NCBI GenBank assembly: GCA_021792615.1
Contig: JAJYUJ010000064.1
Span: forward strand, 1 to 8,078
DNA length: 8,078 nt
Source of the DNA: a bacterium
Lineage (GTDB): Bacteria > JAMCPX01
Direction of reading: 5' to 3'
In this document: in pieces, positions 3,870-8,078 of the stretch
Layout: every line of letters starts with the position of its first letter
How positions within the stretch are numbered: the first letter of the stretch is position 1
Translations under genes and position numbers: made by a program
Notes under the pieces: generated by a model
Database searches by the model: none
What the model was told of the DNA's origin: nothing
What the model saw: the letters and a program-made list of their open reading frames with translations, nothing else

Positions 3870-3902
3870 ATTCTTCTTTCGTTCCAATTAGTATTCCAAT
3901 GC

Positions 3903-3945
3903 TGTAGATGCCTACAAAGCTGTTCTTTATTTTTAATCAAACAGC
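3903..3945 (+). terminator. Possible weak terminator region after the lipoprotein gene
   Basis: Two short hairpins lie here: TGTAG-ATGC-CTACA (3903-3916) and GCTGTT/AACAGC (3919-3924 with 3940-3945) around a T-rich loop. Neither is G/C-rich nor followed by a clean U-run, so intrinsic termination is only a possibility. It sits where the first operon would be expected to end. Confidence 0.2.
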
Positions 3946-3952
3946 AAGCAAA

Positions 3953-3981
3953 CTGACACACCTCTGTCACCGGCATATGTT
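3953..3981 (+). promoter_or_regulatory. Candidate promoter of the AAA+ ATPase cluster with inverted-repeat operator
   Basis: CTGACA (3953-3958, five of six to the -35 consensus) is followed at the optimal 17-nt spacing by TATGTT (3976-3981, four of six to the -10). A perfect inverted repeat TGACA-N6-TGTCA (3954-3969) overlaps the -35 box, as expected of a repressor site. The WYL regulator two genes downstream is a natural candidate to bind it, but nothing in the sequence proves this. Transcription would start near 3988, leaving a leader of about 38 nt that contains a strong Shine-Dalgarno GGAGGTG (4015-4021). Confidence 0.4.
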
Positions 3982-4025
3982 ATTGTAGCCGCAAACATCA
4001 TAATAAAAGTAAGCGGAGGTGTAGT

Positions 4026-5822
4026 ATGAATGATAATACAATGCTTGATGAGAATGCGTTTGAACTTTTACTTGAGATAAATGATTTGTACGAGAAGAAA
4101 AATGCTGAAGGCGTGGATTCTTCTGGCAAAGATACAGCTCTAAATGCAGCATTTCTGATAAAAAGCTCAATTTTTGAAGGGTATAATCTTGATGAAGATG
4201 ACATTAAAATCGTAGCACTTATTCTGGGGAATTATCTTGAAGGCAAAAAAGATATAGAGGCTGTTGAAATTATTAAAAGGATTTGGAAGGATAAAAAGGT
4301 TGTAAAGGCAGAACTAAAAAGGCTCTTAAAAATGAACAAATCAGGGATTCTGGATGTCGTTTGCGGCCCCACGACAAACAACGGTAATGAAGTAACACTT
4401 TTGCGGTCAAGCTTAACGTTATCAGATACAATTTTAGGACGGATTTTTGGTACGGAGTCAAAAGCTTTGGAAAACGAAGAATTTGAGCCATACAAGGATA
4501 ACCTTGAGTATCTTGCCGACCAGTTTGAAAGGGTAAGAATTCTACGCAAGCGAATAGACATGGAAGCCTCAACATCGAGGCTGAAGGACAACAAGGCATT
4601 GGAAAGGATTGAAAACAGGATCGATCGTCGTCTTAAAATAACCGGCAGTTTATTTCCCATGGAAGCATTTAAAAAAGAAAAGGGTTTTAGCCGGGAAGAA
4701 GAGCTGGTTATACTTGCGTTGCTGCAACAGGAAATAGTCGGGAACAACTTCTTCAATCGTGAAGAAGACATTATTGGTACAACCCAGTATGAAAGACTCT
4801 GTTACAGGAAACTCCTTGAGGAAGACGGAATATTATTTAAAGAAAGGATTATTGAGCCAGTTTCTCCAACTGCTTCAAGAAACGGCAGCCTGCTCGGATT
4901 AAAGCTGAACAAGGATTTAAAAAACAGGCTTTATGAAAAGAGAAAGGCTCAAGGAAATGTATTGGATAACCCCGACAGCTTCTTTGAAATAATAGAGCCA
5001 TCCATATCAATGGATAAAGTTATACTTCATCCAAAAACTCATGAGCAGATAAACCTTGCGATCGATATGGTTAAAGGTGAGGTATCTGATCTTTTGAATG
5101 AATGGGGCATAAAAAGTATTAATCTTATTCAGTCCACTTCAAAGAAAAGGCAGCATTCTGTTACAATGCTTTTTTACGGTATACCCGGGACTGGTAAAAC
5201 CCTTACTGCAAATGCAGTGGCTTATGTCTTGAAGAAAAGGTTATTGACCCTTGATTGCTCACACATGTTAGGCAAATATGTTGGAGAGAGCGAACAGAAT
5301 ACAAGAAAGATTTTTGATAGGTATAGAGAAATTTCCGGCATGATGAAAAACCCGCCTGTTCTTCTTTTGAATGAGGCTGACCAGTTTTTACACAGGCGTA
5401 TAAGTGCTCAGCATTCAACTGATCACATGTATAACCAGATACAAAATATCTTGCTTGAGCAGTTGGAAAGGTTTGAAGGGGTGCTGATCGCCACAACAAA
5501 CCTTGCAGACAATCTCGACCCGGCCTTTTCAAGGAGGTTTCATTATAAAATTGAGTTTAGACTGCCGGGGGTCAAAGAAGGGCTGAAACTCTGGCAGGTC
5601 CATATACCGGACAAGGCACCTGTATCAGAAGATGTTAATCTGCAATATCTTTCAGAAAGATACGGTTTAACCGGCGGACAGATTGCGGTTGTTATAAGGA
5701 ACGCAGCCACTATGGCCGCAAAGAGGGGTGATAAAATTTCTATGCATGATTTCATAAGTGCATGTGAAGACGAGGTAAGAGGTAGCTTTGGAGAGCGGGC
5801 AAAGGCAGCAATAGGGTTTTAG
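4026..5822 (+). CDS. AAA+ ATPase with uncharacterised N-terminal region and Asn-Glu Walker B
   Basis: This 598-residue cytosolic protein has a classical AAA module in its C-terminal half (about 330-585). It shows Walker A GIPGTGKT (385-392, Lys391), a pore-loop-like KYVGESE (417-423), Walker B LLLNEAD (446-452, Asn449-Glu450), sensor 1 IATTN (488-492, Asn492), a candidate arginine finger pair SRRF (502-505), and a helical lid with GLTGGQI (547-553). Asn replaces the usual first Walker B Asp, while the catalytic Glu450 is kept. Residues 1-320 match no domain I can name: an acidic helical N-terminus, a Lys/Arg-rich helical stretch (about 150-205) and a segment at about 205-300 that could be a winged helix. 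The Tyr pore loop suggests a hexameric threading or remodelling motor, which is inference. It begins a plus-strand cluster with the WYL regulator and a nuclease. The start is set by GGAGGTG 4 nt upstream. Confidence 0.85.
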   Translation: MNDNTMLDENAFELLLEINDLYEKKNAEGVDSSGKDTALNAAFLIKSSIFEGYNLDEDDIKIVALILGNYLEGKKDIEAVEIIKRIWKDKKVVKAELKRLLKMNKSGILDVVCGPTTNNGNEVTLLRSSLTLSDTILGRIFGTESKALENEEFEPYKDNLEYLADQFERVRILRKRIDMEASTSRLKDNKALERIENRIDRRLKITGSLFPMEAFKKEKGFSREEELVILALLQQEIVGNNFFNREEDIIGTTQYERLCYRKLLEEDGILFKERIIEPVSPTASRNGSLLGLKLNKDLKNRLYEKRKAQGNVLDNPDSFFEIIEPSISMDKVILHPKTHEQINLAIDMVKGEVSDLLNEWGIKSINLIQSTSKKRQHSVTMLFYGIPGTGKTLTANAVAYVLKKRLLTLDCSHMLGKYVGESEQNTRKIFDRYREISGMMKNPPVLLLNEADQFLHRRISAQHSTDHMYNQIQNILLEQLERFEGVLIATTNLADNLDPAFSRRFHYKIEFRLPGVKEGLKLWQVHIPDKAPVSEDVNLQYLSERYGLTGGQIAVVIRNAATMAAKRGDKISMHDFISACEDEVRGSFGERAKAAIGF

Positions 5823-5847
5823 GGATGATTCTAAACAGATCAAAAAG

Positions 5848-5876
5848 TTGACGATCACAGAGAGGTTTAATAAAAG
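5848..5876 (+). promoter_or_regulatory. Weak candidate promoter before the WYL regulator
   Basis: TTGACG (5848-5853, five of six to the -35) is followed after 17 nt by TAAAAG (5871-5876, four of six to the -10). It lies in the 116-bp gap after the ATPase stop and could give the regulator-nuclease pair independent expression. The perfect 10-bp palindrome TTTCATGAAA (5904-5913) lies just downstream and could serve as an autoregulatory site. Consensus match only. Confidence 0.3.
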
Positions 5877-5883
5877 GAAAGCT

Positions 5884-5949
5884 ATGACACAATCCTTCCT
5901 GAGTTTCATGAAAAGATGCAAACCCTACAGGAGTTTCAATGCCATCTAA
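5884..5949 (+). CDS. Possible 21-residue leader peptide overlapping the WYL gene start
   Basis: A short frame starts at ATG 5884 with AAAGGAAA 3-10 nt upstream and ends at TAA 5947-5949. Its predicted peptide, MTQSFLSFMKRCKPYRSFNA plus Ile, is basic and ends 11 bp inside the WYL regulator gene. Ribosomes finishing it would pass over the regulator's own Shine-Dalgarno (AGGAG, 5929-5933), so it could couple translation. No homology is recognised and a frame this short can arise by chance. Confidence 0.2.
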   Translation: MTQSFLSFMKRCKPYRSFNAI

Positions 5950-6943
5950 GTCCGAAAGATTTACCGATAAAACCAATAAGCTGCACAGGCTTATTTCCAT
6001 CCTGCGAAAGCTTGATATCCGTAATAGATGTACTCCCAGAAGCCTTGCAGAAGCGTATGGTACGACAGAACGCACCATCTATAGAGATATTGATGACCTT
6101 AACTCTGCGGGCTTTGGTATCAGGTTTGATAGGGAAGCAAACATCTATACTTTTGCAGACCCTGACTTTACGCTACGAGACCTTAATCTGAGTGAAGATG
6201 AATTAACAGTTCTTTTAATCGGCAGGCAGGTTGCTCAAAACCTTGGCAGCCCTTTTGATAGGATATATCAGTCATTGATGAAAAAAGTTCGCAAGGATAC
6301 AGGCAGAAAGACTCAGGAAGCGGTTAAAAAGTCCAATGGAACACAGCGTTTCTGGATAGGGCTTGACCCAATGGAGGAGTTTGAGAGTATCGAGCATCAG
6401 TACAATATTCTGAACCAGGCAATGGATGAAAAGCATACTGCCGAGATAGTTTATAAGGCAATGTCTTCACAAAAAGAAGAGAAAAGAACTATTGCACCCT
6501 ATGGGCTTATATTCAGCAAGGGGATGTGGTATGCGGTTGCGTATTGCAGCCTTCGCAAAGGGATACGGAGCTTTGCACTCGATTGTATAAAGGATGCCGT
6601 ATTAACTGATGAATTTTATGAAATACCGTCTGAATTCGATCTGAAAGAATACCTTAAACCTGGCTGGCAAATAATAAGCAGCGGCAAGCCGGTGGAAGTG
6701 ATGTTAAGGTTTAACAAAGATATCGCACGGTGGATAAAACGCCGCAAATGGCATCCGACACAGAAAATAGAGGATCAAAAAGACGGCTCAATTATATTCA
6801 AGGTGACGGTGTCCGACACAAGTGAGATAAAATGGTGGTCATACAACTGGGCGCCGAACTGTGAGATTCTCTCTCCACCTGAATTAAGGAAAGAAGTAAC
6901 AGAGGATATAAAGAAACTGGCAAAGATATATGAGAAAAGTTAA
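5939..6943 (+). CDS. WYL-domain transcriptional regulator (HTH-WYL-WCX, YafY-like)
   Basis: This 334-residue protein is a probable ligand-responsive DNA-binding regulator. Residues about 12-72 form a DeoR/HTH_11-type winged helix: KLHRLISILRKL, then the recognition helix region TERTIYRDIDDL (43-54) and wing GFGIRFDREANIYTF. Residues about 146-225 are the WYL domain, with GMWYAVAY (195-202) and the following strand IRSFALDCIKDA (209-220). About 250-331 is the C-terminal WCX-like extension. The triad reads Trp197-Tyr198-Ala199 rather than Trp-Tyr-Leu, and Cys216 occupies the place of the common Arg in the 'RI' motif, while Arg210 is kept. WYL domains are thought to sense nucleic acid or nucleotide ligands and are frequent regulators in phage-defence loci. 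AGGAG lies 5 nt before the ATG. The nuclease gene starts 12 bp after its stop, implying co-transcription. It likely controls this cluster, which is inference. Confidence 0.9.
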   Translation: MPSKSERFTDKTNKLHRLISILRKLDIRNRCTPRSLAEAYGTTERTIYRDIDDLNSAGFGIRFDREANIYTFADPDFTLRDLNLSEDELTVLLIGRQVAQNLGSPFDRIYQSLMKKVRKDTGRKTQEAVKKSNGTQRFWIGLDPMEEFESIEHQYNILNQAMDEKHTAEIVYKAMSSQKEEKRTIAPYGLIFSKGMWYAVAYCSLRKGIRSFALDCIKDAVLTDEFYEIPSEFDLKEYLKPGWQIISSGKPVEVMLRFNKDIARWIKRRKWHPTQKIEDQKDGSIIFKVTVSDTSEIKWWSYNWAPNCEILSPPELRKEVTEDIKKLAKIYEKS

Positions 6944-6955
6944 GGAGGATAAATT

Positions 6956-8078
6956 ATGGCCATCTATTCTAACAGCAAATTAGGCATGTATGAAGCATGT
7001 CCTCTCAAATACAAGCTCAGGCATATAGATAAAATACAGGTTCCGGAAGAAGAAGGAATTGAGGCATTTCTTGGAATCCGCGTTCACGAGGCACTCGAGA
7101 AATTATATAATGATTTAAGTTATTCAAAATTATTAACCCTTAAAGAACTGCTCTCTTATTATAATGCAGAATGGGACAAGAACTGGAATGACTCTGTTGT
7201 TATAAGGAAAAAAGACTATTCTTCCCAAAACTACAAGGACACCGGCATAAGATGCTTAAAGGCCTATTACGAAAAATATAAGCCTTTTAATAAGGCAACA
7301 ACCATGGGGTCAGAGGTAAAGCTTAATTTTTCGTTAACTAAAGACGAAAGGTATAAAATGACAGGTTATATAGATCGTCTTGATAAGATAAAGGATGGGC
7401 AGTATGAGATACATGATTATAAAACATCCAATAGTCTTCCATTGCAGGAACACCTTGATAACGACAGGCAATTAGCACTGTATGATATGGGAATAAGAGA
7501 GAGTTTTCCTGACATAAAAGAGGTCAAACTCGTATGGCATTATCTGACTTTTGATACGGAGATGTCGTCTAAAAGGACACCCGAACAGATCGAAGATTTA
7601 AGAAAAAAGATGATCGCCCTTATTGATACCATAGAAGCGGACACTGAGTTTAAACATCGGGAGTCCGCTCTTTGTGGCTGGTGCGAATATCCTGAGTATT
7701 GCCCTGCGAGAAAGCATCTGGTTAAGGTACAGTCCCTGCCTTCGAATCAAGTCCTGCTTGATGATGGTGTTAAGCTTGTTAGCAAGTATATTGCAGCGTG
7801 GGAAACATCTAAGCGTATAAATGAAGAAATAGGCAGACTGAAAGATGCACTAATAGGGTATGCCAAAAAAAATGGCATAGAACAAATCGCTGGGAATGGT
7901 TACGCAGTAAGGGTCAAGATAGGGGAAAAACTTAAATTTCCGGACACAAGCGATCCTCGGCGTTCAGAACTTGAAAAGCTTGTCAAAGCAGCCGGTCTCT
8001 GGGAGCAGTTTTCAAAACTTGATACAGGTGAGTTATTAAGGTTTATGGAATCCGATAATGAAAACAAGGCAAGATCGG
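6956..8078 (+). CDS. RecB/Cas4/AddB-like PD-(D/E)XK nuclease with Fe-S cysteines (3' end beyond window)
   Basis: At least 374 residues are visible and the frame is still open at the right edge. It is a PD-(D/E)XK superfamily nuclease of the RecB/Cas4 group (PDDEXK_1 type). Visible motifs are: N-terminal SNSKLGMYEACPLKYKL with Cys15; GIRVHEALE with His44; GYIDRLD with metal-binding Asp140; EIHDYKTS with Asp154 and Lys156; and RQLALY with Gln172. Cys240, Cys243 and Cys249 (CxxC-x5-C) complete with Cys15 the four-cysteine pattern that holds a 4Fe-4S cluster in AddB, Cas4 and Dna2 nucleases. Residues about 260-374 go beyond the nuclease core: a helical segment with a coiled-coil look (about 275-305), then a strand GNGYAVRVKIGEKLKF and more helices. 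It likely cuts or resects DNA ends. Start ATG 6956 has AGGAGG (6943-6948) 7 nt upstream. No helicase partner is visible in the window. Confidence 0.88.
   Translation, partial: MAIYSNSKLGMYEACPLKYKLRHIDKIQVPEEEGIEAFLGIRVHEALEKLYNDLSYSKLLTLKELLSYYNAEWDKNWNDSVVIRKKDYSSQNYKDTGIRCLKAYYEKYKPFNKATTMGSEVKLNFSLTKDERYKMTGYIDRLDKIKDGQYEIHDYKTSNSLPLQEHLDNDRQLALYDMGIRESFPDIKEVKLVWHYLTFDTEMSSKRTPEQIEDLRKKMIALIDTIEADTEFKHRESALCGWCEYPEYCPARKHLVKVQSLPSNQVLLDDGVKLVSKYIAAWETSKRINEEIGRLKDALIGYAKKNGIEQIAGNGYAVRVKIGEKLKFPDTSDPRRSELEKLVKAAGLWEQFSKLDTGELLRFMESDNENKARS
7859..7879. repeat. Perfect inverted repeat around an A-tract inside the nuclease gene
   Basis: TATGCCA (7859-7865) and TGGCATA (7873-7879) are exact reverse complements separated by seven adenines. 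With the last base of the left arm this makes a run of eight A. It encodes part of the helical extension of the nuclease (YAKKNGIE region). It could be a hairpin or a protein site, but coding constraint may explain it. Confidence 0.35.

What the first reader, a model, noticed from the sequence alone, without database searches (positions are those of the whole stretch)
4026..8078. AAA+ ATPase / WYL regulator / Fe-S PD-(D/E)XK nuclease cluster: possible undescribed defence cassette
Three same-strand genes encode a pore-loop AAA+ motor, a WYL regulator and a Cas4/AddB-like nuclease, the last two only 12 bp apart. WYL regulators and RecB-like nucleases are recurrent in antiphage islands. This set does not match a system I can name: there are no BREX, DISARM, Zorya, Wadjet or CRISPR adaptation hallmarks. 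The cluster continues past the right edge, so further components are expected.
Basis: partly seen in the sequence, partly recalled or inferred. Interest (0 to 1): 0.65.

Follow-up and report, generated by a model that had tools for sequence, protein, structure and literature searches.

The report
Mobile WYL-controlled nuclease gene island
A block of about 6.8 kb that this bacterium acquired carries a molecular motor, two predicted DNA-cutting enzymes, an orphan protein and a regulator of a DNA-damage-sensing type; related regulators in other bacteria share the same promoter switch, so it looks like an inducible defence or DNA-repair cassette whose function has not been tested.

Summary
The three genes are real: AAA+ ATPase 4026-5822, WYL regulator 5939-6943, Fe-S PD-(D/E)XK nuclease from 6956. 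The window's last 7 bases (agatcgg) are Illumina adapter. A 126-bp exact overlap leads into another contig: the nuclease is 407 aa and is followed, in overlapping frames, by a second PD-(D/E)XK-like gene (270 aa) and an orphan gene. The cluster is a ~6.76-kb AT-rich insertion; four relatives have the empty lipoprotein-ribD site. Strict co-occurrence of the three genes fails: the nuclease is usually solitary, and AAA occurs without the others. However, the WYL-nuclease pair recurs in other phyla, and the WYL belongs to a supported five-member clade. A promoter element, CTGNCA-N5-CTGTCA-N11-TAnnnT, precedes AAA. It recurs in three other clade loci, in one of them before WYL, nuclease and an AAA+ gene; about 150 control loci lack it at two or fewer mismatches. 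Its TGTCA-to--10 distance equals that of PafBC promoters, and PafBC and DriD are the closest solved relatives. Best reading: a mobile, WYL-activated (ssDNA/DNA-damage inducible) nuclease cassette, probably defence, possibly repair. Known parts, new arrangement, function untested.

The parts
3874..8071 (.). Part of the acquired island that lies in the window; the island continues on contig C17 (L003:127 to about L003:2686, joined coordinates to about 10631)
   Evidence: Empty lipoprotein-ribD site in G004, G005, G002, G001; GC 39.5% against 46.5% and 49.0% in the flanks
3953..3969 (+). Promoter element CTGACACACCTCTGTCA upstream of AAA (tandem CTGWCA, 11 bp apart)
   Evidence: Only two exact cores in the own genome, both in the island; third before the G005 AAA; same element in L161, L135, L141
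3981..3986 (+). Predicted -10 TATTGT with TG at 3978-3979, 11 nt after TGTCA
   Evidence: TAnnnT at exactly 11 nt in 8 of 11 sites; random draws reach at most 3
4026..5822 (+). AAA+ ATPase, 598 aa, classic-AAA motor with variable N-terminal half
   Evidence: PF00004 1.4e-28; motifs; 87% homologue in congener G005
5939..6943 (+). WYL regulator, 334 aa (HTH_11-WYL-WCX)
   Evidence: Pfam; profile of its family matches PafBC 8.5e-41; clade support 96/96
6956..8071 (+). Fe-S PD-(D/E)XK nuclease, 407 aa; ends on C17 (L003:234). It is followed there by P270 (L003:218-1030, PD-(D/E)XK-like) and P225 (L003:987-1664, orphan)
   Evidence: PF12705 7e-30; conserved residues and four Cys; AdnA Z 20.9; continuation
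8072..8078 (.). Illumina adapter remnant, not genomic
   Evidence: agatcgg; bases before it continue differently on C17

Best explanation
A horizontally acquired cassette whose WYL protein is a PafBC/DriD-type transcription activator. When ssDNA or DNA damage appears (phage infection, replication trouble), the WYL protein binds CTGWCA-N5-CTGTCA in the -35/-26 region and lets the housekeeping RNA polymerase fire from an extended -10. This raises the AAA+ ATPase and, by read-through, the WYL gene itself, the Fe-S RecB-like nuclease, the second PD-(D/E)XK protein (P270) and P225. The products attack DNA: the RecB-like nuclease degrades ends or ssDNA, P270 probably cuts, and the AAA+ motor remodels a protein or nucleoprotein target. 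Most likely use: inducible defence against foreign DNA. Shown: gene set, insertion, the element and its spacing, its restriction to one WYL clade, nuclease fold and residues. Inferred: WYL binding to the element, ssDNA as signal, read-through, nuclease activity, defence.
For: Insertion against four empty sites and lower GC. Tight same-strand order with overlapping frames for WYL to P225. Element before AAA, repeated in L161 before WYL, nuclease and an AAA+ gene, and in L135 and L141; hits with two or fewer mismatches in about 150 other loci only in WYL-clade loci; WYL clade 96/96, 4 of 5 with the element, 3 of 5 with the nuclease next to WYL. Spacing equals PafBC consensus tTGTCRgtg-8nt-TannnT (PMC5656591). 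WYL profile matches PafBC 8.5e-41 and 8tp8 2.3e-24. ssDNA activates PafBC and is bound by SiwR (PMC11804915, PMC10693628). Nuclease fold and residues. L090 WYL-nuclease sits beside ArdC and type I R-M genes.
Against: WYL binding to the element is inferred from co-occurrence only; L090, the closest WYL, lacks the element. No element lies directly before WYL in the window, so its control depends on read-through across 116 bp. Most nuclease homologues are solitary. Genes under the element elsewhere include UDG-like, DnaJ and polymerase III alpha genes, which suggests repair. P270 and P225 have no detectable homologues, so the whole set has no second example.
Confidence: 0.45

Rival explanations
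1. A mobile DNA-damage-repair module rather than defence: the WYL clade is a LexA-independent damage regulator and the nuclease processes broken ends as AddAB/AdnAB nuclease domains do; the cassette raises damage tolerance.
For: DriD and PafBC control repair genes (PMC12340889, PMC5656591). Elsewhere the element precedes a UDG-like gene (L135) and a DnaJ-WYL-polymerase III alpha operon (L141). Nuclease fold is closest to AdnA/AddB; in about 10 loci the nuclease lies next to a UDG-like gene (family read from sequence).
Against: Acquired at a variable site, absent in close relatives; two orphan partners; L090 neighbourhood has restriction-modification genes.
Confidence: 0.3
2. Chance neighbours: AAA is an independently acquired gene, and WYL-nuclease-P270-P225 is a separate unit that landed beside it; the element before AAA is read by another regulator.
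For: AAA family is a single gene in G193 and G048; G005 has AAA with its own upstream region and no detectable WYL or nuclease; 116-bp gap between AAA and WYL.
Against: The AAA promoter carries the element otherwise found with this WYL clade, including before an AAA+ gene in L161. G005 is 87% complete and its contig breaks inside AAA.
Confidence: 0.2
3. Remnant of a prophage or other mobile element whose nuclease is a phage recombination exonuclease.
For: ORF6N-like fragment at the right end; phage exonuclease families match the nuclease; distant phage relatives; nuclease homologues on contigs classed as viral.
Against: No integrase or structural gene recognised among the island ORFs; no clear terminal duplication; AAA, WYL and nuclease frames intact; no WYL beside the three viral nuclease copies inspected.
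Confidence: 0.05

Closest known systems
PafBC, DriD and SiwR (ssDNA-responsive WYL activators)
   Same: HTH-WYL-WCX architecture; best profile matches among solved structures; DNA element in the -35/-26 region at a constant distance from -10, with the TGTCR-N11-TAnnnT spacing of PafBC promoters.
   Different: Element is a tandem CTGWCA with its own sequence (DriD consensus ATACGAC(X)7GTCGTAT); found outside Actinobacteria and Caulobacter; targets are mobile nuclease/AAA genes; ssDNA response not tested.
BrxR/CapW-type WYL regulators of defence islands
   Same: WYL regulator in an island with nuclease genes; BrxR also has two sites in its island (PMC9122601).
   Different: Sequence is nearer PafBC and DriD than BrxR (8.5e-41 and 2.3e-24 against 8.5e-9); promoter geometry suggests activation, not repression.
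PF12705 Cas4-like nucleases (UvrD-Cas4, phage Cas4-like, ACE1)
   Same: Fold, catalytic residues and four-Cys cluster; some PF12705 loci in defence contexts include WYL genes (PMC5704561); ACE1 Z 18.3.
   Different: Stand-alone 400-aa protein with its own C-terminal part, no fused helicase, no Argonaute, no cas1/cas2.
IetAS (AAA+ ATPase plus subtilisin)
   Same: AAA domain matches IetA models (4.5e-28).
   Different: Match covers the AAA half only; far below the NCBIfam cut-off (95.9 of 510 bits); no subtilisin gene in the island.

Membership tests
Fe-S PD-(D/E)XK nucleases (AddB/AdnA/Cas4 type) | PD-(D/E)XK fold with catalytic residues | tested here: met
   H44, D140, D154, K156, Q172, Y176; model pLDDT 93.1, AdnA Z 20.9, AddB Z 17.0
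Fe-S PD-(D/E)XK nucleases (AddB/AdnA/Cas4 type) | Four cysteines for an iron-sulfur cluster | tested here: met
   C15, C240, C243, C249 invariant in 44 sequences; cluster itself not measured
CRISPR adaptation Cas4 | Adjacent cas1/cas2 | tested here: not met
   No cas1 or cas2 among the island genes scanned
PafBC/DriD-type WYL activators | HTH-WYL-WCX architecture | tested here: met
PafBC/DriD-type WYL activators | Binding element at constant distance from -10 | tested here: met
   8 of 11 sites with TAnnnT at exactly 11 nt; three L141 sites the same (read). That WYL binds the element is inferred
PafBC/DriD-type WYL activators | Activation by ssDNA | not testable with these tools
   Needs protein
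BrxR family | Repressor of a defence operon | not testable with these tools
   Sequence is nearer PafBC/DriD
IetAS | AAA+ ATPase with subtilisin partner IetS | tested here: not met
   No protease family among the island genes; NCBIfam cut-off not reached
Catalogued anti-phage systems (PADLOC-DB 2023) | Full set of system components | tested here: not met
   Only domain-level hits: IetA (AAA part), WYL, Cas4, weak PDC-M15A
Anti-phage defence in general | Recurrent location in defence islands | tested here: inconclusive
   L090 WYL-nuclease beside ArdC and type I R-M genes; most nuclease homologues in ordinary contexts
Anti-phage defence in general | Protection against phage | not testable with these tools
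   Needs experiment

The most novel reading that the evidence does not exclude
A new family of mobile anti-phage cassettes switched on by ssDNA: a clade of WYL activators uses a PafBC-like mechanism, through a conserved CTGWCA-N5-CTGTCA-N11-TAnnnT promoter, to induce exchangeable sets of PD-(D/E)XK nucleases and AAA+ motors in several bacterial phyla.
Probability: 0.3. Interest if true: 0.75.

Novelty: new variant of a known kind. Interest (0 to 1): 0.55.

Why it matters
How WYL regulators in defence and repair islands are triggered is largely open. Here one WYL clade comes with a readable promoter code shared between phyla, so its targets can be listed from sequence and tested in vitro. If the ssDNA-activation reading holds, PafBC-type promoter activation reaches well beyond Actinobacteria and links damage sensing to mobile nuclease cassettes. 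If defence is shown, it adds an inducible system that the PADLOC-DB 2023 catalogue lacks.

Tried and rejected
P270 and P225 homologues: none among 386 genomes or in plasmids; P270 none in phages or genome contigs; P225 none in viral contigs. AAA in viral contigs: none with the single protein; the alignment was too diverged to search with. Nuclease as single protein in viral contigs: nothing; as alignment: 7 loci, none of the three inspected with WYL. Known-system reading (BREX, DISARM, Zorya, Wadjet, CRISPR, IetAS): only domain-level hits. Rfam: nothing at gathering score. tRNA insertion site: none. Terminal repeats of the island: no clear duplication; the 21-bp left/right repeat is the promoter element itself. 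Exact promoter patterns in viral contigs: none. AAA model from a single sequence: pLDDT 35, discarded. General genomic repeat as explanation of the element: rejected, only two exact cores in the own genome, both in the island. A plain palindrome reading was replaced by a tandem CTGNCA reading, because L161 variants (CTGTCA...CTGTCA) break the palindrome and keep the direct repeat.

Full report
OBSERVATION. The three genes exist as described and carry the stated domains. AAA is a classic-clade motor with Walker A, pore loop GKYVGES, Walker B, sensor 1 and arginine finger. WYL has HTH_11, WYL and WCX domains. The nuclease matches PF12705, with weak Cas4 and AddB matches. The window is the whole of contig C44 of its genome. 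Its last 7 bases are Illumina adapter (recognised from own knowledge), and bases 7946-8071 equal the first 126 bases of contig C17 (L003). Joining the two gives a 407-aa nuclease ending at joined coordinate 8179. P270 starts 17 bases before that end. P225 overlaps P270 by 44 bases, or by 11 from a later start with an AAAGGAGG ribosome site. P270 has a PD...EAK core (EPD 84, IEAK 103) and weak matches to PDDEXK_4 (0.014) and to the PADLOC candidate PDC-M15A (5e-6). P225 has no family match. Further right come a short ORF, an ORF6N-like fragment and then the riboflavin operon (operon named from its sequences).

ISLAND. In congeners G004, G005 and G002 and in G001 (another genus of the family) the lipoprotein gene is followed directly by ribD; 22 to about 125 bp separate the two aligned stretches. 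The own genome therefore carries about 6.76 kb of extra DNA between window ~3874 and L003 ~2686. Its GC is 39.5% against 46.5% and 49.0% in the flanks. No integrase was recognised, and no tRNA or clear duplication marks the ends. G005 carries an 87% identical AAA at another locus, together with about 77 bp of upstream DNA at 88%, but no detectable WYL, nuclease, P270 or P225. G005 is 87% complete and its contig breaks inside AAA, so absence there is not certain. AAA differences between the two genomes are mostly at third codon positions (17, 20, 64), as expected for a maintained protein.

CO-OCCURRENCE. AAA: full-length homologues in two unrelated genomes are single genes among ordinary neighbours. 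Nuclease: about 18 long homologues among 386 genomes, and 396 relatives in genome contigs, of which the best 80 were kept. Two of the 80 gave no nuclease ORF in my gene calls and were not classified. Neighbourhoods are mostly ordinary; about 10 loci share a UDG-like neighbour and a run of heme genes. A WYL gene lies immediately upstream in L161 (Thermodesulfovibrionia) and L225 (Planctomycetota), and in L090 from the 386-genome search. In L161 the nuclease overlaps another PD-(D/E)XK-like protein (PDC-S11, 1.6e-18), not detectably related to P270, and an AAA+ gene, only distantly related to ours, lies 7.7 kb further on. L090 continues with ArdC and type I restriction genes.

NUCLEASE. In 44 aligned homologues H44, D140, K156, Q172, Y176 and C15, C240, C243, C249 are invariant and D154 nearly so. 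The model (pLDDT 93.1) matches the AdnA nuclease (Z 20.9), Argonaute-associated ACE1 (Z 18.3) and AddB (Z 17.0). Residues beyond about 256 were not covered by these matches. Cas4-like PF12705 proteins in defence loci, some with WYL genes, are described in PMC5704561.

REGULATION. Upstream of AAA lies CTGACACACCTCTGTCA (3953-3969). In the own genome and two congeners the exact core occurs only there, at L003:1725-1740 in the same island, and upstream of the G005 AAA. The same element appears in L161 at six places, all in gene direction: before WYL, before the nuclease, before three other ORFs and 48 bp before the AAA+ gene. With two mismatches allowed L161 has 7 matches against 0.38 expected, 0 of 100 shuffles. 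L135 (G007, same family as the window genome) has two exact copies; with the looser pattern chance is not negligible there (8 of 200 shuffles). L141 has three. A scan of 4.06 million positions (about 150 loci, both strands; window and G005 not included) gave hits with two or fewer mismatches only in L135, L141 and L161. A tree of 21 WYL proteins puts the window, L090, L141, L161 and L135 together at 96/96. Four of these five loci carry the element (L090 does not), and three of five have the nuclease directly downstream of WYL. None of the other 16 carries it; L225, outside the clade, has the nuclease. In 8 of 11 sites TAnnnT starts exactly 11 nt after TGTCA (random draws reach at most 3 in 2000), mostly with an extended -10 TG; the three L141 sites do the same (read). 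The PafBC promoter consensus is tTGTCRgtg-8 nt-TannnT (PMC5656591), the same 11-nt distance. DriD sites likewise overlap the -35 at constant distance from -10 (PMC12340889). The WYL profile matches PafBC at 8.5e-41 and 8tp8 at 2.3e-24 (that 8tp8 is a DriD structure is from own knowledge). PafBC is activated by ssDNA and SiwR binds it, through their WYL domains (PMC11804915, PMC10693628). No binding was shown here; the link between WYL and the element is co-occurrence.

MECHANISM AND RIVALS. The best reading is a WYL-activated, ssDNA- or damage-inducible nuclease cassette. AAA is the first gene behind the element, and read-through would reach P225; no terminator was predicted in the AAA-WYL gap, which is weak evidence. 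Defence is favoured by the insertion, the orphan proteins, two nuclease-type proteins and the L090 neighbourhood. Repair is favoured by the UDG-like gene and the DnaJ-WYL-polymerase III alpha operon behind the same element elsewhere and by the AdnA/AddB fold. Independent acquisition of AAA is the third reading, made less likely by the shared element.

NOVELTY. All parts belong to known kinds. The combination, and a promoter element tied to one WYL clade across phyla, did not turn up in the papers searched, a limited library. I rate it a new variant of a known kind.

Noticed in passing
window:8072-8078: Illumina adapter start (agatcgg) left at the contig end; other contig ends of this assembly may carry it too.
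   Followed up: yes
L003:1665-2690: Right end of the island: second copy of the promoter element before a 71-aa ORF, dispersed short repeats shared with other contigs of the family, a near-perfect 27-bp palindrome and an ORF6N-like fragment on the minus strand (PADLOC PDC-S05, 3.5e-21). It looks like decayed cassettes.
   Followed up: partly
L141:3045-10480: Genome G049 carries a second WYL of the clade in a DnaJ-WYL-DNA polymerase III alpha operon behind the same promoter element, with two more copies of the element nearby, one upstream of a metallo-beta-lactamase-fold gene.
   Followed up: partly
L135:439-3705: In G007, a genome of the window's own family, a WYL of the clade lies near a UDG-superfamily-like gene and an ankyrin-repeat gene, with two exact copies of the element upstream.
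   Followed up: partly
L161:8678-20844: Thermodesulfovibrionia island with six copies of the element in about 10 kb, among WYL, nuclease, PDC-S11-like protein, AAA+, GGCT and toxin-antitoxin-like genes: probably the richest locus for this regulon.
   Followed up: partly
L167, L182, L195: In about 10 genome-contig loci the nuclease lies between a UDG-like gene and heme genes, a recurrent context that suggests a repair role for the solitary form.
   Followed up: no
L137, L138, L139, L140, L143, L144: Several more distant WYL-WCX homologues sit directly upstream of what look like CRISPR-Cas operons (identified by eye from the protein sequences).
   Followed up: no
L038 (G005:C381) and L272 (G000:C67:4243-9000): The G005 copy of AAA lies next to a conserved transporter/kinase block whose counterpart in G000 and G004 is followed by different genes: a second variable site.
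   Followed up: partly
window:1757-3175: HAMP plus adenylate/guanylate cyclase protein upstream of the island, conserved in the family and not part of it.
   Followed up: no
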